A DNA stretch of 64,000 bases from an uncultured Psychroserpens sp. GTDB taxonomy: Bacteria > Bacteroidota > Bacteroidia > Flavobacteriales > Flavobacteriaceae. The stretch spans positions 186,001-250,000 of the forward strand of contig NZ_CANMVN010000001.1 of NCBI RefSeq assembly GCF_947501425.1, in the 5' to 3' direction. Each line of letters starts with the position of its first letter. Position 1 is the first letter of the stretch. Of this stretch, positions 1 to 11,684 are shown piece after piece. A model generated the notes under the pieces. The model made no database searches and was not told the origin of the DNA. It saw nothing but the letters and a program-made list of their open reading frames with translations. Made by a program: the position numbers and the translations under genes.

Positions 1-451
1 GTCTTACGACAATGAAGAAGGACCAGAAATTATTGACGAAGCCATGTATCATTTTTATGATGCCGAAACTATGATGGGATTTAAATTGGTAAATACAGGA
101 TTACAAATGATATTAGACAAAGCCGTACCTGAGACCATCGCAGCGCATTTTCCTAATATTGTACACCCTTTTTTAAAGCGAAATGGGATGACTATCGAAG
201 ATGTAGATCACCTCATTTTTCATCCAGGTGGAAAGAAAATTGTACAAACTGTTGAAGATCTGTTTGGATCATTGGGAAAGAATATCAACGATACTAAAGA
301 CGTGTTGAAGCTCTATGGAAATATGAGCAGTGCCACAGTATTATATGTTTTAGAGCGTTTTATGGATAAGCAACCTGCAAAAGGAGAAAAGGGATTAATG
401 CTGAGTTTTGGACCAGGATTTTCAGCACAGCGAATTTTATTAGAATGGTAA
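1..451 (+). CDS. Type III polyketide synthase, C-terminal part (cut by window start)
   Basis: This is the C-terminal ~150 residues of a chalcone/stilbene-synthase-like enzyme. The frame is open from base 2, so the gene begins before the window. Visible signatures are FHPGG, carrying the catalytic His of the Cys-His-Asn triad, YGNMSSAT, carrying the catalytic Asn, and a SFGPGFSA stretch matching the family GFGPG loop near the C-terminus. The nucleophilic Cys lies outside the window. Such enzymes extend an acyl starter with malonyl-CoA and cyclise the product, often to alkylresorcinols or pyrones. The next five genes on the same strand form an acyl-ACP making and priming set, so a fatty-acyl starter delivered from ACP is my inference. 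The product is unknown. Confidence 0.85.
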   Translation, partial: SYDNEEGPEIIDEAMYHFYDAETMMGFKLVNTGLQMILDKAVPETIAAHFPNIVHPFLKRNGMTIEDVDHLIFHPGGKKIVQTVEDLFGSLGKNINDTKDVLKLYGNMSSATVLYVLERFMDKQPAKGEKGLMLSFGPGFSAQRILLEW

Positions 452-460
452 TTTAAAATT

Positions 461-517
461 GTCATGCTGAGCGCACACGTGTTAATGAAGCTTTAGCGTA
501 AGTACAGTCGAAGCATC
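461..517. repeat. REP-like palindromic element, degenerate copy
   Basis: The 83-bp gap after the polyketide synthase gene contains GTCATGCTGAGCGCA and, about 29 bases further on, CAGTCGAAGCATC. Together these resemble a short palindromic repeat also seen (reverse complement) at 8088-8115, here with an insertion in the middle. I see no coding capacity or terminator in it. Its class is inferred from the two copies in this window. Confidence 0.4.
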
Positions 518-534
518 ACTATTGAATAGTAAAA

Positions 535-1329
535 ATGAATGAATTTAAACAAAACAACTATTGGGCACTCATTTTAGGAGGCTCAAGCGGATTGGGCTTG
601 GCTACAGCCAAAAAACTTGCTAAACACGGCATGAATATTTGTATTGTTCACCGAAATGCTCGAATGCAAGAGGATGCTATTACTGCCGAATTTGATACAA
701 TTAAAAACGAAGGTATTCAGTTTAGGTCCTTTAATATTGATGCGTTTAAACCTGAAAAGCGAGACCAGATCGTTTCTGAATTAAAAACTGTTTTAGGTAC
801 TCAGGGTCGAATTAGAACACTAGTTCATAGTGTGGCCAAAGGAAATTTAAAACCGATGTTGGACGAGAATAAACCCACATTAAAAAATGATGATTTCAAC
901 TTAACCATTAATGCGATGGCGATTAGTTTATACGATTGGACCAAAGCCGTTTTTGAGGCACAACTATTTGCTGAAGATGCACGTATAATTAGTTTTACTA
1001 GTGAGGGCAATACTAAAGCCTGGAAGAACTATGCTGCTGTCTCAGCGGCGAAAGTCACTTTAGAGGCCATCACCAGAAATTTAGCTCTGGAGTTTGCGCC
1101 TTACGGAATAAGAGCCAATTGTATTCAAGCAGGTGTTACAGATACAGCGTCTTTGCGAATGATTCCTGGTAGTGATCAAATTAAAATGCACAGCTTAAAA
1201 CGAAATCCGTTTAAACGATTAACCCAACCTGATGATGTCGCTAATGCGGTCTATTTACTTTGCAAAGATGAAGCGCGATGGATTAATGGTTGTGTGATTC
1301 CTGTAGATGGAGGAGAACATATCTCTTAA
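535..1329 (+). CDS. SDR-family enoyl-ACP reductase-like protein (FabI/FabL type)
   Basis: A 264-residue short-chain dehydrogenase. The N-terminal GGSSGLG motif at residues 15-21 binds NAD(P)H. The catalytic pair is Tyr166 and Lys173 with six residues between them, the Y-x6-K spacing of FabI/FabL enoyl-ACP reductases rather than the Y-x3-K of ketoreductases. The C-terminal VDGG is usual for the fold. The predicted role is reduction of enoyl-ACP in the chain built by the neighbouring ketosynthase and dehydratase. It lies 83 bp after the polyketide synthase gene and overlaps the following dehydratase gene. No ketoacyl reductase is seen in the window, so this protein might have a broader role or the missing enzyme may lie to the left. 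Confidence 0.75.
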   Translation: MNEFKQNNYWALILGGSSGLGLATAKKLAKHGMNICIVHRNARMQEDAITAEFDTIKNEGIQFRSFNIDAFKPEKRDQIVSELKTVLGTQGRIRTLVHSVAKGNLKPMLDENKPTLKNDDFNLTINAMAISLYDWTKAVFEAQLFAEDARIISFTSEGNTKAWKNYAAVSAAKVTLEAITRNLALEFAPYGIRANCIQAGVTDTASLRMIPGSDQIKMHSLKRNPFKRLTQPDDVANAVYLLCKDEARWINGCVIPVDGGEHIS

Positions 1330-1786
1330 ATATAAACGAATATTTAAATTGAATAATAAACAAATCATAGCGTTATTACCCTATCAACATCCTTTTTTGT
1401 TTGTTGATGACCTAACCGAAATATCTACGGAAACTATTACTGGACATTATACATTTCCGTCAGACGCTTATTTTTATGAAGGTCATTTTAAAGACCATCC
1501 AGTGACACCAGGTGTGATTTTAACCGAATGTATGGCACAGATTGGCGTAGTTTGCTTAGGGATTTATCTTTTAAAAGATGAGCTTTCAAAAGATATACTT
1601 CCACAGATCGCCTTAACGTCTAGTCAGATGGATTTCTTTTTACCAATCTATCCAGGTGAAAAAGTGACTGTGGTTTCTGAGAAAGAGGTATTTCGTTTTA
1701 ATAAGCTGAAATGTAACGTCAAATTATTTAATAAAAAAGAGGAGTTAGTGTGTCGCGGAAAAATTTCAGGAATGATTAAAACATGA
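1307..1786 (+). CDS. FabZ-like 3-hydroxyacyl-ACP dehydratase
   Basis: A hot-dog fold dehydratase of 159 residues. LLPYQHPFLFVDD near residues 23-35 matches the FabZ N-terminal signature. EGHFKDHPVTPGVILTE at about 58-74 carries the expected catalytic His60 and Glu74. It should dehydrate 3-hydroxyacyl-ACP. The ATG at 1307 overlaps the reductase gene by 23 bp; a TTG at 1349 (codon 15) is an alternative start closer to the family N-terminus, and the sequence does not decide between them. Its stop overlaps the ketosynthase start by 4 bp, implying translational coupling inside a biosynthetic operon. Confidence 0.85.
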   Translation: MEENISLKYKRIFKLNNKQIIALLPYQHPFLFVDDLTEISTETITGHYTFPSDAYFYEGHFKDHPVTPGVILTECMAQIGVVCLGIYLLKDELSKDILPQIALTSSQMDFFLPIYPGEKVTVVSEKEVFRFNKLKCNVKLFNKKEELVCRGKISGMIKT

Positions 1787-3054
1787 AAAATAGAGTTGTC
1801 ATAACAGGATTGGGAGTTGTAGCGCCAAATGGTGTTGGTCTGGACGCGTTTTCTAAAGCCATAAAAAACGGACAATCAGGAATTACATTTCATCAGCAAT
1901 TAGCCGACTTGAACTTTTCGTGTTGTATAGGTGGAGTACCTCAAATTTCCGAAGACAAAAAACTGGAATACCTCACGCCTCTGCAATTAAGAGGCTTTAA
2001 TAGCTCAGGAATTTTATACGGCTGCATGGCTGGTATTGATGCCTGGAAGGACGCAGGATTTTCAGTGGATTCTAATAGTGATTTAGACTTTGATAGCGGA
2101 ACTGTTTTTGGTACAGGAACCTCAGGCGTGGAGAAATTTAGAGAAGCTATTTACAAGTTGGATGACAAACAGGTAAAGCGTCTAGGTAGTACTGTTGTGG
2201 TGCAAACTATGGCTAGCGGAATTAGCGCTTTTCTCGGTGGCATTCTCGGATTAGGAAATCAAGTGACTACAAATTCTTCGGCGTGCACTACAGGAACTGA
2301 AGCTATTTTGATGGGTTATGAACGGATTAAAAATGGTCAGGCTAAACGCATGCTCGTTGGAAGCTGTAGTGATGATGGTCCGTATATTTGGGGAGGATTT
2401 GATGCTATGAGAGTGATGACCTATAAGCATAACGATACTCCAGAACAAGGCTCAAGACCTATGAGTGCAAGCGCATCAGGATTTGTGCCTGGCGCTGGAG
2501 CAGGTGCTTTGGTTTTAGAATCCTTAGAAAGTGCATTACACCGAAACGCAACCATCTATGCTGAGGTGTTGGGCGGACATATCAATTCTGGAGGTCAACG
2601 AAATGGTGGCACGATGACGGCTCCAAATGCTCAAGCTGTACAGCGATGTATTAGAGAAGCTATTGTCAATGCAAATATTACTGCTGACGATATTGATACC
2701 ATTAACGGACATTTAACAGCCACCTCAAAAGACGCTTTAGAGATAGAAAATTGGACGAAAGCTTTAGAAAGAAAGGGTGGAGATTTTCCGTATATTAATT
2801 CGTTAAAATCTATGGTTGGCCATTGCCTAGCTGCAGCAGGAAGCATAGAGAGTGTGGCTACTGTGTTGCAATTAAAAGAGCAATTTGTATTTCCTAATCT
2901 CAATTGTGAGGATATTCATCCAGAAATTTCTGAATTAATTGCAGTAGATAAGATTGTAACGCGTCAATTAAAAACAAAACTAAATATTGCGGCAAAAGCC
3001 AGTTTTGGTTTTGGCGATGTCAATGGTTGTATTATCTTTAAGAGATATAATTAA
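1783..3054 (+). CDS. Beta-ketoacyl-ACP synthase (FabF-like), cluster-specific
   Basis: A 423-residue thiolase-fold ketosynthase. The active site is complete: Cys168 in NSSACTTG, His310 in INGHLTAT, Lys342 and His347 in SLKSMVGHCLAAAGS. The His310 loop reads NGHLTATSKD where the housekeeping FabF in this window (52187-53437) has NTHGTSTPLGD, so this is a divergent paralogue rather than a duplicate of the primary enzyme. It probably condenses malonyl units on the dedicated ACP encoded 3 bp downstream. The start overlaps the dehydratase stop (ATGA). Substrate chain length cannot be read from the sequence. Confidence 0.88.
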   Translation: MKNRVVITGLGVVAPNGVGLDAFSKAIKNGQSGITFHQQLADLNFSCCIGGVPQISEDKKLEYLTPLQLRGFNSSGILYGCMAGIDAWKDAGFSVDSNSDLDFDSGTVFGTGTSGVEKFREAIYKLDDKQVKRLGSTVVVQTMASGISAFLGGILGLGNQVTTNSSACTTGTEAILMGYERIKNGQAKRMLVGSCSDDGPYIWGGFDAMRVMTYKHNDTPEQGSRPMSASASGFVPGAGAGALVLESLESALHRNATIYAEVLGGHINSGGQRNGGTMTAPNAQAVQRCIREAIVNANITADDIDTINGHLTATSKDALEIENWTKALERKGGDFPYINSLKSMVGHCLAAAGSIESVATVLQLKEQFVFPNLNCEDIHPEISELIAVDKIVTRQLKTKLNIAAKASFGFGDVNGCIIFKRYN

Positions 3055-3057
3055 ACT

Positions 3058-3312
3058 ATGACCAAAGACGAACTTATTGCCAAACTTAAAACCATTGTTC
3101 AACCTTATATTCAGGATGAAGCAGCTTTTAAAAACCTTTCGGAAGACACAGATTTTATTAACGACCTGAAAATTAATTCAGCAAATCTGGTAGACGTGAT
3201 CTTAGATGTTGAAGACGAATTTGACATTCGAATTGAAAATGACGATATGGAGAAAATGACCTCTGTAAAAGCGGCTATGGATATCATTAATGAAAAATTA
3301 ACCGAAAAATGA
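3058..3312 (+). CDS. Acyl carrier protein, cluster-specific
   Basis: A small acidic carrier protein of 84 residues. The phosphopantetheine attachment site is Ser41 in DLKINSANLVDVIL, which departs from the usual DSLD motif of the housekeeping AcpP in this same window (51940-52173). The helix following the serine and the acidic EDEFDI stretch fit the ACP fold. The gene sits between a ketosynthase and a phosphopantetheinyl transferase, so it is likely the private carrier of this pathway, activated by its neighbour. It overlaps that transferase gene by 4 bp. Confidence 0.85.
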   Translation: MTKDELIAKLKTIVQPYIQDEAAFKNLSEDTDFINDLKINSANLVDVILDVEDEFDIRIENDDMEKMTSVKAAMDIINEKLTEK

Positions 3313-3875
3313 TTGGGAATGATATTGTCGATTTAAAACACAGTGCTCCCAACTGGAAACGACCACGTTTTTTAGAGAAGGTGTTCACTAAAAAAGAACA
3401 GTCATTTATTTTGTCTTCTGAAAACCAACATCAAATGGTTTGGTTGTTATGGAGCATGAAAGAAGCGGCTTATAAGGCTCATGTACAACACTTTGAAAAC
3501 CGATTTTTTAATCCGAAACGTTTAGAATGTGAGCTCATTTCCGAAGAGAATGGTCTGGTTATCATTGATACAATCAAGTATTATACATCCTCAACGATTA
3601 CTCCAGAGTATGTTTATACAGTTGCTAAGCAAAATAATATTCAGGTTCTGCATACCACGCTTTTTACTTCTGAAATATCAAATCAATCACTTCAAAGTGC
3701 TAAATTAAAAGAGCGTGCTCTAAAATCAATCTCAGAAACTAAACATTTAAACCTTAAGACTTTAGAGATTAGAAAAACCAAAATTGGAATCCCCAAACTA
3801 TTCTATGCTTCAGAAAAACTTGCTATGCATTTGTCTTTGACACATTGCGGACGATTTTCAGGGTTTGTATTTTAA
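3309..3875 (+). CDS. 4'-phosphopantetheinyl transferase family protein
   Basis: A 188-residue transferase. The N-terminus MIGNDIVDLK gives the metal-binding Asp, and WSMKEAAYKAH at 48-58 gives the family (W/F)xxKE(A/S)xxK signature with Glu52 and Lys56. It should transfer the phosphopantetheine arm of CoA to the serine of an ACP, most simply the one encoded directly upstream with a 4-bp overlap. It is last in the biosynthetic run; the next gene follows a 68-bp gap and is unrelated. No obvious terminator was seen after it. Confidence 0.85.
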   Translation: MIGNDIVDLKHSAPNWKRPRFLEKVFTKKEQSFILSSENQHQMVWLLWSMKEAAYKAHVQHFENRFFNPKRLECELISEENGLVIIDTIKYYTSSTITPEYVYTVAKQNNIQVLHTTLFTSEISNQSLQSAKLKERALKSISETKHLNLKTLEIRKTKIGIPKLFYASEKLAMHLSLTHCGRFSGFVF

Positions 3876-3943: not shown

Positions 3944-5404
3944 ATGAAATATCTATACATTACCGTCGTAATACTCTTCACGTTTTGTAGTTGCCAAAAT
4001 AATGAAACAATTAAACCCACAACATTAACAATCAAGTCAAATATAGACACGGTTAGTGTAGCCAAAGTATTTAGACCTATTAACGGTACGATATTATGGG
4101 ATATTACTTTGGATGAGATCCTTAAAAAGGATAGCGATTCACTATCTGGAGATTTAAACATAGAGAACTCTGAAATTGTAAGGGTATTAGTTGGTGGAAA
4201 ACGTTTTAGAATGATTTTATTGCCTAACCAGAATTATGGTGTTGGAATTGATGGTGATTCCATAATATTTACTGGTGATAATGCCAAAGGACAAGAGGTT
4301 CTAAATGCATTTGACAGAGCATATGTAGCAGGTTTTCCATTTTTAAATAGATTTACAAAAGACACCACTGCAACCTTATTATCCAATCATATACATGACT
4401 ATAAATTTAAAGATATATCAACGATAGATGAACTATTAAAAACAGAGGCTATTGATACCGATTTCCACAGTGTTTTAAAAACAGAAATTGATTATTATTA
4501 TGCAGAGGGCTTGGTCAATATTGCCAATTATAAAGCTGAGCGCGCAAAAGGGAGTGTGTTGAAAAATTTTAAGGATTTAGTAGAAACAACTAAAGTTTCA
4601 TTTCCTTTTACAGTGGAACAAAAACCAATAAACTGGGTAGATTATGTTATGGAAGCAGAAATTAGACCAGCCATTGTAGAACGTTACACTAAAGCAGATC
4701 GAGAACAGTTTTATAGTTCAGATACCATTCATCACATATATAAAGGCGTCATTAATGAACAATTAGAAGAACCATTCAGAGAACAATTGCTTGCGAATTA
4801 CATACTAAATGCTTCAAAGCAAAACCAATATGAAAAGAGCTTGATTCAAATTTTTGATGAGTTTAACACTAATTATCCTGAGAGTGTGTACAGCCCGTAT
4901 CTTGAAAACGACATTTTGAAAATCAGAACGTATTATCAAAAAATTCAGGGAGAGCTTCCAGACACAGTGACATTTACAGGAGATGAAAATACTAATAGTC
5001 TAAAAGAATTAATCAAAGAATTTGAAGGTCAAAAATTGTATATAGATGTTTGGGCAACTTGGTGTGGCCCTTGTAAAAAAGAGTTTTCTAATAACGATAA
5101 AATTACAGATATACTTAAAGACAATGGTTACAAGAAACTATATATTTCAATTGATAAAAAAGAAGTGAAAGGCAAATGGTTAGGGCTTATTAAATTCTAT
5201 GATTTAGCTGGTTATCACCATTTGGCAAGCCAGGAGTTTGTTGTGGATTTTGCGGAGAATCATTCGACCAGAAAAGGAGTAGTTTCAATTCCGCAGTATT
5301 TATTGATTAATGAAAAAGGTGAAATCATAACTAATGATGCGCCAAGACCAGGAGCTCCTAATGATTTGCTTGATTTTATTAAAGGCTTGGATCAGGAGTA
5401 CTAA
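3944..5404 (+). CDS. TlpA-like thioredoxin-fold lipoprotein
   Basis: A 486-residue protein with an N-terminal lipoprotein signal (hydrophobic stretch to a FCSC lipobox, probable lipid Cys17). The first ~330 residues are a family-variable extracytoplasmic region. The C-terminal third is a TlpA/ResA-type thioredoxin domain with WATWCGPCKKEF (Cys374 and Cys377) and a later cis-Pro-type SIPQYLLI segment. It is likely a periplasm-facing disulfide reductase of the type abundant in Bacteroidota; the partner is unknown. It converges with the DUF434 gene, the two stops overlapping by 4 bp. No operon partner is visible. Confidence 0.82.
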   Translation: MKYLYITVVILFTFCSCQNNETIKPTTLTIKSNIDTVSVAKVFRPINGTILWDITLDEILKKDSDSLSGDLNIENSEIVRVLVGGKRFRMILLPNQNYGVGIDGDSIIFTGDNAKGQEVLNAFDRAYVAGFPFLNRFTKDTTATLLSNHIHDYKFKDISTIDELLKTEAIDTDFHSVLKTEIDYYYAEGLVNIANYKAERAKGSVLKNFKDLVETTKVSFPFTVEQKPINWVDYVMEAEIRPAIVERYTKADREQFYSSDTIHHIYKGVINEQLEEPFREQLLANYILNASKQNQYEKSLIQIFDEFNTNYPESVYSPYLENDILKIRTYYQKIQGELPDTVTFTGDENTNSLKELIKEFEGQKLYIDVWATWCGPCKKEFSNNDKITDILKDNGYKKLYISIDKKEVKGKWLGLIKFYDLAGYHHLASQEFVVDFAENHSTRKGVVSIPQYLLINEKGEIITNDAPRPGAPNDLLDFIKGLDQEY

Positions 5405-6105
5405 CTAAAAATGATGTTGTTATTTGGTATGTGATGCTCAATCATATAAGCGCTAAGATTGAGCCATCGTTCTGCACGATCTAAAATCCAGGCATCTGAA
5501 CTCACAACTACATGTTCACTTTCAGCAAGTAATTTGTCTGGGTTATTATCTAAAATAATCTCCCAATCAAAACCAGATTCTTCAGCAGTTTCCCGGAGTA
5601 AGGTTTTAAGTCGACCACTATTAGAAACGGGTTTGTCAAAGATCCAGATTACTTTATGATCTTTTAAAAGCTCACCAACTAATTGTAAGGCGTTTTCAGT
5701 TTGTTGCACACGTTTATACGTACCATGAACTCCAGATAAATCGCGATAAGTAGTATCTAGACCTTTAAAGAGATAAGCATCAGATAAAGCGCTTTCTAAA
5801 ATAATAAGGAGGTTAAATCCGTCGATATAAATAGTCTCAGCGTTGAGGTTTTCAAAAGCAACTTCATGAGCTTGTCGTCTTTTGACTTGTTGCTCTGAAG
5901 CACTCATCCCTTGTACGGCTTTTTGCTGTCTTACATTAAGTCGGTGTTTATTGCCAACCAATTGTAAGGACGATCTTTCGGCATAACCTCTGGAGAGCAA
6001 ATAGTGCATATCTGCAACAGCTGCTTTGAGTGTTTGCTGAATGTCATCAGCTCCAAAAAGCTGATCGTCATTGCTGTTTTTTCCTCGGTTTCTTTGGTTG
6101 GGCAT
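5401..6105 (-). CDS. DUF434-type protein with PIN/NYN-like nuclease fold
   Basis: A 234-residue protein. The N-terminal part (about 20-65) with SRGY and LVGNKHRLNVRQ resembles DUF434. The C-terminal part has YIDGFNLL (Asp95, Asn98), an acidic Glu104, IFDKPVSNSGR (Asp157) and SSDAWILDRAERW (Asp204, Asp209), an arrangement like the acidic cluster of PIN/NYN RNases. A metal-dependent RNase is therefore a structural guess, not a demonstrated activity. It lies directly downstream of the rtcB pair on the same strand, but a hairpin terminator at 6150-6182 separates them, so it may be transcribed on its own. Its neighbourhood with an RNA ligase is the main clue to its role. Confidence 0.65.
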   Translation of the reverse strand: MPNQRNRGKNSNDDQLFGADDIQQTLKAAVADMHYLLSRGYAERSSLQLVGNKHRLNVRQQKAVQGMSASEQQVKRRQAHEVAFENLNAETIYIDGFNLLIILESALSDAYLFKGLDTTYRDLSGVHGTYKRVQQTENALQLVGELLKDHKVIWIFDKPVSNSGRLKTLLRETAEESGFDWEIILDNNPDKLLAESEHVVVSSDAWILDRAERWLNLSAYMIEHHIPNNNIIFS

Positions 6106-6149
6106 CTTGTTAGTTTATAAAACTTAAAATAGTATTTTGAAATGAATTG

Positions 6150-6182
6150 AAAAAGTAGACATATTAGTTATATCTACTTTTT
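6150..6182 (-). terminator. Intrinsic terminator after the rtcB pair
   Basis: A 10-bp stem (arms 6150-6159 and 6173-6182, AAAAAGTAGA with TCTACTTTTT) and a 13-base loop, ending in a T run on the minus strand directly after the stop of the 142-residue gene. It is AT-rich and so of moderate strength. Confidence 0.6.
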
Positions 6183-6184
6183 AT

Positions 6185-8132
<1,948 letters not shown>

Positions 8133-8150
8133 GCAAATATTTAACCCTAT

Positions 8151-8172
8151 TGCGCAATCTTTTTGCGTAGTA
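8151..8172 (-). promoter_or_regulatory. Candidate operator of rtcB, shared with the WYL-dioxygenase promoter
   Basis: On the plus strand this reads TGCGCA, seven bases, then TGCGTAGTA. The identical words with the same 7-base spacer occur at 9902-9923. The half-sites form an imperfect palindrome (TGCGTAGT reads ACTACGCA on the other strand). On the rtcB strand it lies about 9 bases upstream of AATATTTG, a one-mismatch match to the Bacteroidota -7 box, so it covers the -33 region. Binding by the WYL protein is inference. Confidence 0.6.
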
Positions 8173-8270
8173 GTAAAAAGTTTTAAAATTAATAGTTTAT
8201 AGACATTTTTTCTTTTCCTAATTATATAGCCTAAGGGGATTCCTTTGAAATTTAAAATGTTATAAACTCA

Positions 8271-8831
8271 TTATTTAAATGGTGGTTCCCATGTTTTTAG
8301 ACTCATAATATCCTTAACCTCTTCGTAGGTTAACGGATAGAAATCGTGACAATCTACGCCTACATCAAAGCTATTCATTGTTGGATCGTCTTTAAGACTT
8401 CCGTGGGAATGGCCGTATAAATGCCATGTGCCTCTGAAGCTTGAACGCCATACTCTCATTGCATAGTGTAAGAGGATGATTTTTTGCTTGCCATTAGGTG
8501 CATCGGCATCGTTGACATTGAGTTCGAAATAATCTTTAATCCATTCAAATCGGTTAGGATTTGCTAAGGCAGCTCCTTCGTGATTGCCTCGTATTAAAAA
8601 GATTTTTCCATTTAATTGCTCAAGGATGTCTCGCATTCGCTCAGCTTTGCAGAGTCCGAAATCACCTAAGTGATACACCTTGTCGTGTTTGTTAACTCGG
8701 CTGTTCCAACGTTTTATGAGTTCCTTGTCCATTTCTTCTGCACTACCAAATGGACGATTGGTGAATTTTATAATATTCTCATGACCAAAATGATGGTCTG
8801 AAGTGAAATATATATTTCGTGTTTTATTCAT
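8271..8831 (-). CDS. Calcineurin-like metallophosphoesterase
   Basis: A small phosphoesterase of 186 residues. Metal-binding motifs in order are SDHHFGH near the N-terminus, HLGDFG, RGNHE, LHYA and YGHSHG. Substrates of this family range from nucleotides to RNA ends and cannot be told from motifs. I use the ATG at 8831; the longer frame would start at a TTG at 8858. It lies 40 bp after the TPR gene on the same strand and about 120 bp before the rtcB promoter, between rtcB and the WYL regulator. A role in trimming RNA termini is possible by context but unproven. Confidence 0.85.
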   Translation of the reverse strand: MNKTRNIYFTSDHHFGHENIIKFTNRPFGSAEEMDKELIKRWNSRVNKHDKVYHLGDFGLCKAERMRDILEQLNGKIFLIRGNHEGAALANPNRFEWIKDYFELNVNDADAPNGKQKIILLHYAMRVWRSSFRGTWHLYGHSHGSLKDDPTMNSFDVGVDCHDFYPLTYEEVKDIMSLKTWEPPFK

Positions 8832-8871
8832 GTGTTCTAATGTTTTTAAAAGCCTCAACAGGCTTTCGGTA

Positions 8872-9420
8872 TTATTTTTTATTCTTTTTTTGCTTCCTCT
8901 TTTTTGTCTTTTTGTTTTTGGAAGACTTCTTTTTCTTTGGTTTTATCTTGTTTTTAACTCTAGTGATTTCAGAGTCAACAAACGACATAAAACTATTGTT
9001 GTAAATGAACAACTTCGCTTTTTTAAAAGCTTTTAATGCATTTTTATACGCTTCCTGACATTCAAAAAGTTGAGCTTCTAGAACTAAAAGTTCACCTTTT
9101 CCAACAGCCTTTACAGTGTGAGCGAAGTCTATTAATTTTCTTGCCTCATCATAATCGTGATTCCAAATCAATACCAAAATGTATTTTGGGTAGACTTTTA
9201 TGAAATCCATTTTATTTGCTAATGCTTCAGCATAATAAAACTTTGCTTTTTCGTAATCTCCAAACTGTTCTGCTTGTAAACGTCCCATGAGGTATAAGGC
9301 ATAAGCATTATGACTCTCGTAAGACAAAGCGTAGTTTAGATTTTCTACTGTTTCTTCTAGATCGTATGGATAAGCATCTATTGCTTTTAACACGTAGTTG
9401 TTTAACAAATTCGTGTCCAT
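8872..9420 (-). CDS. TPR-like protein with lysine-rich tail
   Basis: A 182-residue soluble protein I cannot assign to a named family. It contains about three helical repeats of TPR character (for example NAYALYLMGRLQAEQFGDYEKAKFYYAEAL split over two helices) and ends with ~30 residues that are mostly Lys, Asn and Ser, a feature often linked to nucleic acid binding. Start at ATG 9420; an upstream GTG at 9453 is in frame but adds only 11 residues. It precedes the metallophosphoesterase gene and probably shares its transcript. Confidence 0.6.
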   Translation of the reverse strand: MDTNLLNNYVLKAIDAYPYDLEETVENLNYALSYESHNAYALYLMGRLQAEQFGDYEKAKFYYAEALANKMDFIKVYPKYILVLIWNHDYDEARKLIDFAHTVKAVGKGELLVLEAQLFECQEAYKNALKAFKKAKLFIYNNSFMSFVDSEITRVKNKIKPKKKKSSKNKKTKKRKQKKNKK

Positions 9421-9567
9421 TGTTTTTTGTTTTAATAATTTGTTTTGCGACACATAAGTTCGCTTCAGCTCAAACTTTGAGCCTATTATCTTACTGCTTT
9501 GGAGGAGGATTAGCTGACTTGCTAATTAGTGAAAAATAACCTTTACAAATGCTATGGTTATCAAACA

Positions 9568-9605
9568 AAAAATCCGAAACAGTTACATAATTGCTTCGGA
9601 TTTTT
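9568..9605 (-). terminator. Intrinsic terminator after the 24-residue ORF
   Basis: An 11-bp stem AAAAATCCGAA (9568-9578) with TTCGGATTTTT (9595-9605). On the minus strand it is followed by a T run (TTTTTTG). No annotated gene reads into it from that side except the small ORF at 9628-9702, which suggests a separate short transcript. Confidence 0.6.
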
Positions 9606-9627
9606 CATTGTGTTATGAAAAAGTATA

Positions 9628-9702
9628 CTAGCTATACGCCCGAAGCATCACAAAAGGGTTCTTCCCTTTAGGATTTCCTACAGATGATATGAATACAAAC
9701 AT
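9628..9702 (-). CDS. Possible 24-residue peptide or small RNA
   Basis: In the 542-bp gap between the TPR gene and the WYL gene there is an ATG-initiated frame of 24 codons containing SVGNPKGKNPFVMLRAYS. It stops 23 bases before a clear minus-strand terminator. The transcript would also hold a GC-rich hairpin AAAGGG-AAGAA-CCCTTT. A TAAATATTTG box at about 9761-9770 (minus) could be its -7 promoter; the rtcB leader has the same word. It could be a small protein, a leader peptide or a non-coding RNA. Nothing else recognisable is in this gap apart from the operator at 9902-9923. Confidence 0.35.
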   Translation of the reverse strand: MFVFISSVGNPKGKNPFVMLRAYS

Positions 9703-9901
9703 AGCTTCGAGTTTTAGTTGATATTAATTTTTTTGCCGGAATTATTTAATTCTGCTGTGCAAATATTTAGATTTATTTTTCATTTTTCAAAATTTATTTT
9801 TTCAAATTCTGAAAATCGAAGCACTTAATACGAAGTATTAACTTTTTTTGAAAAAAGCAAGATTTCCAATCAAAAATTTATTTTTTCCGAATTTATCAGA
9901 C

Positions 9902-9923
9902 TGCGCATCATAATTGCGTAGTA
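9902..9923 (+). promoter_or_regulatory. Candidate operator of the WYL-dioxygenase gene
   Basis: TGCGCA, seven bases, TGCGTAGTA: the same words and spacing as at 8151-8172. Extending one side, ACTGCGCA (9900-9907) and TGCGTAGT (9915-9922) form an 8-bp inverted repeat with one mismatch. A -7-like TACTTTTA follows at 9930-9937, so the motif overlaps the -33 position, and the ATG is at 9963. This arrangement suggests autoregulation. Confidence 0.6.
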
Positions 9924-9962
9924 ATTATTTACTTTTAGTTCTGAAAAGAAATTTCTAGTAAA

Positions 9963-11684
9963 ATGGCAGTAAACAAAAATGCGCTAATTCGATATAAAAC
10001 TATTGATAAATGTCTTCAAAACACCTTCAGACGATGGACGCTTAATGATTTGATAGAAGCGTGTTCTGATGCCTTGTATGAATATGAAGGTAAGGATGTA
10101 GATGTAAGTAAACGAACAGTTCAGTTGGATATTCAAATGATGCGAAGTGACAAGTTAGGTTACAACGCTCCAATTGTGGTTTATAATCGTAAATTCTACA
10201 CGTATGAGGATAAAAATTACAGTATCACTAATAGTCCGATCTCTAATCAAGATCTCACCAAATTATCTGAAGCCGTTGCATTTTTAAAGCAATTTCAAGG
10301 GTTTTCCCATTTTTCAGAATTGAGCAGTATGGTTCAGAAATTAGAAGACCATGTCTACACTCAAAAAACTCAGGAGAAGTCTTTGATTGATTTTGAAAAA
10401 AACGAAAACTTAAAAGGCCTTGACTTTTTGGATGAGCTCTATCAGTATATTTTAAAAAAACAGGCAATCGAGATTACTTACCAATCGTTTAAGGCTAGGC
10501 AGAAAAGCACGTTTACATTTCATCCATATTTACTTAAAGAGTTTAGAAACCGATGGTTTGTAATTGGAAAGCGCAAGTCAAACGAAGGGATTATGAATCT
10601 CGCATTAGATCGTATTATTTCCGTAGAAAAAAGTAAAATTGCATTTGTTTTTGATGATCATTTTAATTCAGATACGTATTATAAACAAGCCATAGGTGTA
10701 TCTGTGAGTCCAGACATGGGAGCAGAACATGTTTTGCTTTATGTTAGTCATAAGCAAGCGCCTTATGTGTTAACGAAACCTTTTCATCATACTCAAAAAG
10801 AAGTCGCACGTGATAATTATGGTGTGACTATTTCATTGGATGTACAATTAAATTATGAGCTTGAAAAAGAAATATTAGGATTAGGAGAAGGCATTAAAGT
10901 TATTGCTCCAGAGCGCTTAAAACGCAATATTAAAGACCGTTTGTATGATGCGGTTGATGCCTATGAAACAGAGATTAATGATAAGAATTTACGAACAATT
11001 TCAAAACGTCTGGAATATAAAGGGTTTGGTATTTTGAATCATGTGTATACCAAACGTGATATAAGAAAGTTAAAGACCAAACTCGATGCTTATATCAAGC
11101 ATAATAATGAGCAAGCGTTTGGAATGCGCGAAGTACTGATAAAAATGCCAGAACTTAAAGACATTCTTTTCAATAAAAACTTCAGAAAACTGATTAGATC
11201 TATTGATAAGGATGCATTTATGACCAAAGCAGTATATTTTGACAAATCTCCTCAAGATAATTGGTATGTCACATGGCATCAGGATATTCCTATTAATGTC
11301 TCAAAAAAAATAGACACAGAAGGCTTTGCCTCATGGACCAATAAAAAAGGGGTTATTAGTGTTAGACCTCCTGAGACGATTTCGAAAAACACTTTTTCTA
11401 TGCGCATTCATCTAGATGATACTACGATTAAAAATGGAGCGTTAAAAATCATTCCTGGTTCTCACCGTAAACAATTAACAGATGAGGATATTAAGCTGAT
11501 TTCTGCGAACTCAATACCATTCATAAGTGAAGTAGGTTCTGGAGGGGTTCAACTCTTAAAGCCACTAGTACTTCATGCCTCTTCGGAATCTAAAGTTCAA
11601 CGACGCAGACGTGTATTGCATTTAGAGTTTTCATCTCTGGAATTACCAAACGGATTGGAGTATGCCGAAAAGGAAATATTCTAA
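9963..11684 (+). CDS. HTH-WYL regulator fused to a PhyH-like Fe(II)/2-oxoglutarate dioxygenase
   Basis: A 573-residue two-part protein. Residues 1-90 look like the winged-HTH start of WYL regulators. Residues about 155-330 form the WYL domain (ITYQSF, NRWFVIGKR around Trp198) and its C-terminal extension. Residues about 345-560 resemble phytanoyl-CoA dioxygenase: iron ligands His439 and Asp441 in WHQD, NGALKIIPGSH at 491-501, distal His538 in LVLHASS and a basic RRRR at 547-550 for 2-oxoglutarate. WYL domains usually sense a ligand, often a nucleic acid or nucleotide. The fusion suggests a regulator that senses or modifies its ligand oxidatively. Its promoter shares an operator-like motif with rtcB. 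It ends flush against the convergent ABC gene. Confidence 0.8.
   Translation: MAVNKNALIRYKTIDKCLQNTFRRWTLNDLIEACSDALYEYEGKDVDVSKRTVQLDIQMMRSDKLGYNAPIVVYNRKFYTYEDKNYSITNSPISNQDLTKLSEAVAFLKQFQGFSHFSELSSMVQKLEDHVYTQKTQEKSLIDFEKNENLKGLDFLDELYQYILKKQAIEITYQSFKARQKSTFTFHPYLLKEFRNRWFVIGKRKSNEGIMNLALDRIISVEKSKIAFVFDDHFNSDTYYKQAIGVSVSPDMGAEHVLLYVSHKQAPYVLTKPFHHTQKEVARDNYGVTISLDVQLNYELEKEILGLGEGIKVIAPERLKRNIKDRLYDAVDAYETEINDKNLRTISKRLEYKGFGILNHVYTKRDIRKLKTKLDAYIKHNNEQAFGMREVLIKMPELKDILFNKNFRKLIRSIDKDAFMTKAVYFDKSPQDNWYVTWHQDIPINVSKKIDTEGFASWTNKKGVISVRPPETISKNTFSMRIHLDDTTIKNGALKIIPGSHRKQLTDEDIKLISANSIPFISEVGSGGVQLLKPLVLHASSESKVQRRRRVLHLEFSSLELPNGLEYAEKEIF

What the first reader, a model, noticed from the sequence alone, without database searches (positions are those of the whole stretch)
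8151..9923. Shared spaced operator at the rtcB and WYL-dioxygenase promoters
TGCGCA, seven bases, TGCGTAGTA occurs at 8151-8172 and 9902-9923, with the same spacing. Both copies cover the predicted -33 region, one serving the minus-strand rtcB and one the plus-strand WYL fusion gene. The half-sites are near-palindromic, as for a dimeric regulator. This predicts that the WYL-dioxygenase protein controls RNA ligase expression and its own, a regulon I do not recognise from known RtcR/rtcBA control.
Basis: partly seen in the sequence, partly recalled or inferred. Interest (0 to 1): 0.85.

Follow-up and report, generated by a model that had tools for sequence, protein, structure and literature searches.

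The report
WYL-controlled RNA-repair regulon with operator
A short two-part DNA signal sits in front of both the RNA-ligase gene rtcB and the gene of a WYL regulator fused to an oxygenase, and the same signal recurs in related bacteria in front of RNA-repair genes and spare tRNAs, so it probably marks an undescribed switch for repairing broken RNA.

Summary
TGCGCA-N7-TGCGTAGTA lies at 8151-8172 and 9902-9923, the only exact TGCGYA-N7-TGCGYA sites in the 3.7 Mb genome. The signal is a conserved near-palindrome, ACTRCGCA-N7-TGCGYAGT. In 149 family genomes, 17 of 17 rtcB orthologues that co-occur with the WYL gene carry it; 0 of 3 without the WYL gene do. In 80 named WYL loci (Bacteroidota and a Balneola MAG), 63 have it within 400 nt upstream of the WYL start (130 sites; 3 in each of two controls). 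It also precedes Ro60, RlaP, Band-7/slipin-like, T4-type RNA-ligase and tRNA genes, and heads, borders or lies within most of the arrays of 6-19 tRNAs found. On the target side the -7 box TTTG stands at one exact spacing (60 of 65 named, 22 of 30 in the overlapping unnamed set) and the usual -33 box is missing, as at the targets of the WYL activator DriD. Best reading: a DriD-like WYL activator of an RNA-damage regulon. Binding, sign of control, signal and autoregulation are inferred. A covarying hairpin lies in the rtcB leader (8016-8058). In this genome the regulon is small: the rtcB operon and the WYL gene.

The parts
8134..8137 (-). TTTG of the predicted -7 box of rtcB, at the exact operator spacing seen in 60 of 65 repair-gene promoters of the named loci
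8016..8058 (-). rtcB leader stem-loop; 10-bp stem, 8 of 10 pairs with compensatory changes over 30 sequences; one match in the genome
6610..8004 (-). rtcB, RNA ligase (PF01139); the only PF01139 match in this genome
6185..6613 (-). 142-aa protein without Pfam match, overlapping the rtcB stop; related protein follows rtcB in G006 and G044
5401..6105 (-). DUF434/DUF5616 protein, third gene of the presumed rtcB operon; also downstream of rtcB in L138 and L088
9914..9943 (+). possible promoter of the WYL-PhyH gene: TTG 9914-9916 inside the operator, N19, TAGTTCTG 9936-9943 (both boxes imperfect)
   Evidence: Bacteroidota consensus TTTG-N19-TAnnTTTG is recalled
9963..11684 (+). WYL-WCX-PhyH protein, 573 aa; WYL 155-222, WCX 255-327, PhyH 418-550; H439, D441, H538 invariant in 18 fused proteins aligned

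Best explanation
The WYL protein (here fused to a 2-oxoglutarate/Fe dioxygenase) is a dimeric transcription activator of the DriD kind. It binds ACTRCGCA-N7-TGCGYAGT centred near -33 of promoters that have a -7 box but no usable -33 box, and recruits RNA polymerase there when RNA is damaged. It thereby turns on rtcB and, in relatives, Ro60, RlaP nucleotidyltransferases, a slipin-like Band-7 protein, other RNA ligases and spare tRNAs. At its own promoter the operator lies where a -33 box would be, so it may also repress itself. The likely signal, bound by the WYL domain, is a fragment of broken RNA such as a tRNA half. Shown by computation: the operator, its conservation, its partner genes, its co-occurrence with the WYL gene, and the spacing to the -7 box. 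Inferred: binding by the WYL protein (my odds about 0.9), activation (about 0.75), RNA as signal (about 0.5), self-repression, and any role of the dioxygenase.
For: Only two exact sites in the genome. Co-occurrence in 149 family genomes: WYL orthologue 20, rtcB orthologue 20, both 17, Fisher P 1e-16, not corrected for kinship. Operator 5' of rtcB: 17 of 17 with WYL (scores 19.1-33.6; 11 of these sites were not in the training set), 0 of 3 without (best 5.0; Fisher P 0.0009), best 5.1 in the 9 more distant RtcB loci tested. Of the 20 WYL orthologues 19 have an operator in the fetched locus. A strict pattern in 397 family genomes gives 25 sites in 21 genomes and 0 in the reversed control; 22 of the 25 lie in this regulon's loci. 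In 80 named loci: operator within 400 nt of the WYL start in 63, somewhere in the locus in 74; 130 sites against 3 and 3 in controls. Spacing in the named loci: TTTG at the exact column in 60 of 65 repair-gene sides (gene within 250 nt) and 11 of 11 tRNA sides, 0 of 56 WYL sides; -33 position AAAA in 52 of 60. Foldseek ranks DriD-DNA (E 1.9e-10) and PafBC (2.3e-10) first. DriD sits over -35 at a fixed distance from -10 and activates the operon divergent from its gene (PMC12340889, passages).
Against: No binding, expression or mutant data. A repressor could also sit over -33, and the functionally closest regulon, TrcR, is run by a repressor. Spacing is less strict in the window plus unnamed loci, a set that overlaps the named one: 22 of 30 repair-gene sides; with the gene 250-1500 nt away 10 of 16 (named) and 7 of 17. 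In G128 (L043, the same place as L095) the exact TTTG is on the WYL side and not on the RtcB side. Self-repression is weakly supported: target-only operators carry the same TTTG on the other strand (56 of 66), and of ten WYL operators without an exact target promoter opposite, 7 have it; leaving out the four that still face a repair gene (L167, L188, L191, L198), 3 of 6. 6 of 80 named loci have no operator (L141, L154, L157, L166, L172, L194) and G033 has the WYL gene without one. Three of the 25 strict sites are elsewhere. Some first ORFs after operators have no known function. PafBC and DriD sense single-stranded DNA. Foldseek TM-scores to DriD and PafBC are low (0.15-0.30).
Confidence: 0.65

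Rival explanations
1. Same regulon, opposite sign: the WYL protein is a repressor that covers -33 at all targets and lets go on stress, as the RHH repressor TrcR does for rtcB, slipin and the tRNA operon of Anabaena.
For: TrcR controls a similar gene set by repression; the operator lies over -33 on both sides; spacing is not strict in every locus (22 of 30 in the window plus unnamed set).
Against: Target promoters lack the -33 box (AAAA in 52 of 60) and hold TTTG at one exact spacing in 60 of 65 in the named loci, which a repressor does not need; the nearest solved relatives found, DriD and PafBC, are activators.
Confidence: 0.2
2. The site belongs to another factor, and the WYL gene is merely one more target in the regulon.
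For: No direct binding data; 6 of 80 named WYL loci and G033 lack the site.
Against: Among the close rtcB orthologues tested the site is there only when the WYL gene is present (17 of 17 against 0 of 3); the distance from site to WYL start is 31-39 nt in 46 of 63; seven more distant WYL homologues have no site; the N-terminal segment is almost invariant in the aligned WYL proteins.
Confidence: 0.08
3. The regulon answers DNA damage: the WYL domain binds single-stranded DNA as in DriD and PafBC, and RNA repair is downstream of it.
For: DriD and PafBC bind ssDNA; in Salmonella DNA damage leads to tRNA cleavage and rtcBA induction (PMC7790460, passages).
Against: Among the operator targets that could be named I found RNA-repair and tRNA genes and no DNA-repair gene, though about 20 first ORFs after operators were not assigned a function.
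Confidence: 0.3
4. Chance repeat: the two copies are unrelated or a mobile repeat.
For: Short motif.
Against: Conserved at the same promoters in many genera, 130 sites against 3 in each control.
Confidence: 0.01

Closest known systems
DriD (Caulobacter) and PafBC (mycobacteria), WYL activators
   Same: WYL-WCX build; DriD: pseudo-palindromic site over -35 at fixed distance to -10 and activation of the divergent operon (passages). Foldseek top hits.
   Different: Their regulons are DNA-damage genes and their ligand is ssDNA; here the named targets are RNA-repair and tRNA genes, and a PhyH oxygenase is often fused. PafBC is a heterodimer that does not bind its promoter alone.
TrcR of Anabaena sp. 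PCC 7120 (PMC10272220)
   Same: One autoregulated factor controls rtcB, a slipin and a long tRNA operon (abstract and passages).
   Different: TrcR is a ribbon-helix-helix repressor; the gene sets also differ (RsgA, RimK there; Ro60, RlaP, release-factor-like protein here).
RtcR / sigma-54 control of rtcBA (PMC7790460)
   Same: A regulator encoded next to and divergent from rtcB switches on RNA repair; Ro60 and noncoding RNA can be in the operon (passages).
   Different: RtcR is a CARF-domain enhancer-binding protein; here the regulator is a WYL protein with a -7-type promoter, and the six genes scanned in the window include no rtcA.
BrxR and the CBASS-linked WYL factor (name CapW recalled)
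   Same: Same WYL family (search listing with starts of abstracts).
   Different: Linked to phage defence, not RNA repair. Papers not read beyond the listing.

Membership tests
DriD/PafBC-type WYL activator | WYL and WCX domains | tested here: met
   PF13280 E 1.7e-12, PF25583 E 8.7e-7
DriD/PafBC-type WYL activator | N-terminal winged HTH | tested here: inconclusive
   No Pfam HTH hit; helices 2-19, 27-42, 50-61 and strands 71-75, 78-81, but pLDDT under 50 over most of 61-93; match to DriD over 353 columns with low TM
DriD/PafBC-type WYL activator | palindromic site over -35 at fixed distance from -10 | tested here: met
   TTTG at one column in 60 of 65 repair-gene promoters of named loci (22 of 30 in the window plus unnamed loci); start sites not mapped
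DriD/PafBC-type WYL activator | binds ssDNA and activates transcription | not testable with these tools
   needs in vitro transcription
RtcR/sigma-54 rtcBA system | RtcR (CARF) and rtcA beside rtcB | tested here: not met
   Pfam of six genes at 5401-11684 shows neither; the rest of the genome was not searched for RtcR or rtcA
TrcR-type regulon | RHH repressor | tested here: not met
   the presumed regulator is WYL/WCX; the genome was not searched for a TrcR homologue
TrcR-type regulon | targets rtcB, slipin and a tRNA array | tested here: met
   in relatives, e.g. L182, L187; not in the window's own genome

The most novel reading that the evidence does not exclude
Bacteroidota have an 'RNA SOS' response: a WYL activator that senses broken RNA directly switches on a repair kit plus an emergency set of up to 19 tRNAs that replaces the cleaved ones, from one operator type, through transcripts that often share a conserved leader hairpin; the fused dioxygenase adds an oxygen, iron or 2-oxoglutarate input or itself acts on RNA.
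Probability: 0.4. Interest if true: 0.92.

Novelty: new variant of a known kind. Interest (0 to 1): 0.82.

Why it matters
How bacteria notice broken RNA is worked out for RtcR. This would be a third, unrelated controller of rtcB (after RtcR and TrcR, the two I know of), in a phylum for which I found no rtcB regulator described, with an exact operator and promoter geometry that can be tested at once. It ties WYL sensors, known for DNA damage and phage defence, to RNA repair. It also links arrays of spare tRNAs to an RNA-damage switch, as in Anabaena but with an unrelated regulator.

Tried and rejected
Chance repeat: rejected. RtcR-type control: no RtcR or rtcA among the six genes scanned. That the oxygenase domain defines the regulon: rejected, because many orthologues with the operator have no PhyH part. 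Ro60/Y RNA in this genome: no TROVE gene and no Rfam hit near rtcB at gathering score; a permissive scan of 7990-8190 gave only a sub-threshold Pseudomonadales-1 hit (18.2 bits, cut-off 68), taken as chance. A slipin target in the own genome: only 26%-identical matches. That the -33 TTTG on the WYL side shows self-repression: weakened by the controls. VIA-align listed only PhyH-side folds (model residues 330-573); the WYL half rests on Foldseek and Pfam. Burroughs and Aravind 2016 on RNA repair systems is not held, so an earlier remark there on WYL genes beside rtcB cannot be excluded.

Rows dropped: of 43 rtcB leaders listed, 32 went into A3 (left out: L163, L169, L178, L191, L196, L199, L204, L038, L050, L079, and L080 as a copy of L187); A4 took 30 of these 32 (left out L192 and L047 as near-copies). 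The locus L117 (fragment of RtcB in G100) and the further RtcB matches that got no locus were not tested for operators. The matrix was trained on 13 sites, 6 of which are also the site of one of the 17 rtcB genes.

Full report
WHAT WAS CLAIMED.

Both copies are exact. In the whole 3.70 Mb genome the core TGCGYA-N7-TGCGYA occurs without mismatch only at these two places; with one mismatch allowed the counts are close to the reversed control (7+9 against 6+8). The genes are as described: rtcB at 8004-6610 (PF01139, the only PF01139 match in the genome), followed by a 142-aa protein and a DUF434/DUF5616 protein, and a 573-aa WYL-WCX-PhyH protein at 9963-11684.

IT IS CONSERVED, AND IT FOLLOWS THE WYL GENE. 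I searched 149 genomes of the family for the WYL protein and for rtcB. Close WYL orthologues (51% identity or more) are in 20 genomes, close rtcB orthologues (61% or more) in 20, both in 17 (Fisher P about 1e-16, not corrected for kinship). Of the 20 WYL genomes, 19 have an operator in the fetched locus; G033 has none. A matrix was trained on 13 operators found 5' of WYL genes. Tested on rtcB promoters, it finds an operator scoring 19.1-33.6 within 700 nt in 17 of 17 genomes with both genes, and none in the 3 rtcB orthologues without the WYL gene (best 5.0). In 9 more distant RtcB loci tested, the best score is 5.1. Eleven of the 17 sites were not in the training set; six were, being single operators shared by divergent wyl and rtcB. 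Seven more distant WYL homologues have no such site (best 7.4). In the window only the two reported sites score above 10.

UNBIASED GENOME SEARCH. The strict form ACTRCGCA-N7-TGCGYAGT occurs 25 times in 21 of 397 family genomes, with none for the reversed control. By neighbourhood 22 of the 25 sit beside rtcB, the WYL gene (or an HD-like gene ahead of it), RlaP, Ro60, a Band-7 gene, a T4-type RNA ligase, or tRNA or tRNA-like genes. The three exceptions are a site 5' of an Asp/Glu racemase gene in two species of one genus (G007, G241; Pfam run on one) and one site at a 443-aa protein without a Pfam match (G353).

NAMED SPECIES. The operator (score 16 or more) lies within 400 nt of the WYL start in 63 of 80 and anywhere in the locus in 74 of 80; 130 sites against 3 in reversed and 3 in complemented sequence. 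The distance from the 27-mer to the WYL start is 31-39 nt in 46 of the 63. Six loci have none.

THE REGULON. Genes next to operators were named by Pfam on representatives: RtcB of three kinds, RlaP (PF10127, 'RNA repair pathway'), TROVE/Ro60, Band-7/slipin-like, a T4-type RNA ligase (PF09511), and, in some of the same gene rows, an RF-1-domain protein resembling PrfH (name recalled). Of 130 operators in the named loci, 112 have the exact -7 spacing on one side; the first feature there is an RtcB gene in 45, a tRNA in 15, Band-7 in 8, RlaP in 8, Ro60 in 6, none found within 1.5 kb in 7, and in the other 23 single cases, mostly ORFs without an assigned function. tRNA genes thus belong: in 11 of 11 cases in the named loci where a tRNA is the first feature within 250 nt of an operator, the spacing is exact; these are tRNA-Tyr, -Pro and -Phe. 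Arrays of 6-19 tRNAs lie in 14 loci from 13 genomes. An operator follows the array at 7-540 nt in nine of the 14, precedes it at 671-1338 nt in three (L127, L131, L177; in L127 another lies 1.1 kb after it), lies inside it in L044, and in L198 the nearest is 4.5 kb upstream. Most arrays share an order (..Leu-Leu-(Arg)-Gln-(Ile)-His-Phe-(Arg)); L044 and L196 differ. Where the operator follows, the array is co-directional with RtcB, RlaP, TPR or other genes 5' of it, so it may belong to an operon with its own operator further upstream; that is inference. In the window's genome the regulon is small: no Ro60, no close slipin, no tRNA near rtcB, no further exact site.

PROMOTER GEOMETRY. In the named loci, on repair-gene sides with the gene within 250 nt, TTTG of the -7 box stands at one exact column after the operator in 60 of 65; the place of the usual -33 box reads AAAA in 52 of those 60. 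On the WYL side TTTG is at that column in 0 of 56. In the window plus the unnamed loci, which overlap the named set, the figures are 22 of 30 repair-gene sides, 4 of 4 tRNA sides, 0 of 17 WYL sides and 0 of 10 HD-WYL sides; with the gene 250-1500 nt away 10 of 16 (named) and 7 of 17. One locus (G128, L043/L095) has the exact TTTG on the WYL side. For self-repression: on the WYL side a TTTG inside the operator (52 of 56) stands 19 nt before a TAnnTT-like box. But operators that serve only a target carry the A-tract too, hence TTTG on the other strand, in 56 of 66. Of ten WYL operators with no exact target promoter opposite, 7 have TTTG; four of the ten still face RtcB, Ro60 or Band-7, and of the other six 3 have it. 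So activation geometry is well supported and self-repression weakly. The Bacteroidota consensus TTTG/TAnnTTTG is recalled, not from a call. For the window: rtcB operator 8149-8171 and TTTG 8137-8134; WYL operator 9900-9922, TTG 9914-9916 and TAGTTCTG 9936-9943.

MECHANISM. In DriD the dimer's DNA-binding domains flank sigma-4 over the -35 region, the sites have one distance to -10, and the driD promoter is bidirectional with activation of the divergent operon (PMC12340889, passages read). The geometry found here is alike. The regulon, though, is that of RNA repair: compare TrcR in Anabaena, a repressor of rtcB, a slipin and a 26-gene tRNA operon (PMC10272220, abstract and passages), and RtcR, which senses 5' tRNA halves ending in cyclic phosphate (PMC7790460, passages; tRNA-Tyr, -Phe, -Cys and -Trp are among those cleaved there). 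I therefore propose a DriD-like activator whose WYL domain reads RNA damage. The signal is inference.

LEADER HAIRPIN. The rtcB leader holds a stem-loop (window 8016-8058) whose 10 pairs form in 99.7% of cells over 30 sequences; 8 pairs have changes on both sides and the covariation score is 0.65 against 0.30 shuffled and at most 0.15 slid. A covariance model finds it once in the own genome. Among 81 sources it gives 33 hits (E up to 0.5). By hand comparison are on the operator's strand and each lies 46-116 nt after an operator (29 of 32 at 46-57); one is the complement of the same hairpin in L197. Eighteen of the 32 were used to build the model and L192 is a near-copy; 13 are independent, of which L169 and L196 are weak. 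The other eleven follow operators that head tRNA or slipin-like transcripts. Not all leaders have it: 11 of the 43 were left out of the alignment, L080 as a copy and ten that I judged by eye to lack a matching hairpin. It reached no Rfam gathering score. Function unknown; a processing or translation-control element of regulon transcripts is my guess.

NOVELTY. WYL activators and rtcB regulons are known kinds; this pairing, the operator and the hairpin I did not find in the papers held (searches; listings and passages only; no search was made for the hairpin by itself). Hence 'new variant of a known kind'.

Noticed in passing
window 8016-8058 (-): Covarying stem-loop in the rtcB leader; in relatives it follows regulon operators at nearly constant distance, also ahead of tRNA/slipin transcripts.
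   Followed up: yes
window 5401-6105 (-): DUF434/DUF5616 protein at the end of the presumed rtcB operon, also downstream of rtcB in L138 and L088; possibly an RNA-acting enzyme (a guess).
   Followed up: no
window 8079-8133 (-): The window's rtcB leader holds an extra palindromic stretch (..ACACTGAGCGCAGTCGAAGTG..); operator-hairpin distance is 89 nt against 46-57 in 29 of 32 matches.
   Followed up: no
L127, L131, L177, L182, L187 (= L080), L196, L197, L198, L044, L078, L085, L089, L093: Arrays of 6-19 tRNAs in RNA-repair loci; Ala and Thr appear in none of the 14 arrays listed.
   Followed up: partly
L128, L129, L136, L137, L139, L037: Family of about 190-210-aa proteins (..FDVLTEKITVSEFENWLY..) as first gene after an exact operator-promoter; no Pfam match for the two tested.
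   Followed up: partly
L169, L188, L198, L205: Family of about 590-604-aa proteins without Pfam match (one tested) about 245 nt behind an operator.
   Followed up: partly
L092:3321-3821 (+): Barstar-like gene (PF01337) between the operator and rtcB.
   Followed up: no
L087:4900-5050 (-): Two odd tRNA-like genes with four-base anticodons behind an operator-led 443-aa protein.
   Followed up: no
L038, L041, L044, L052, L055, L078: Flavo-1 RNA (RF01705) occurs in several of these loci.
   Followed up: no
L090:6197, L091:6061: Strict operator 5' of an Asp/Glu racemase gene in two species of one genus, with no repair gene recognised nearby.
   Followed up: partly
L043:6134 (= L095:10134): Operator with reversed polarity: the exact -7 spacing is on the WYL side, 167 nt from the WYL start, and not on the side of a divergent RtcB.
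   Followed up: no
window 44-3875 (+): Ketosynthase, acyl-carrier protein and phosphopantetheinyl-transferase-like genes in a row, perhaps an aryl-polyene or flexirubin cluster (from reading the translations, recalled).
   Followed up: no
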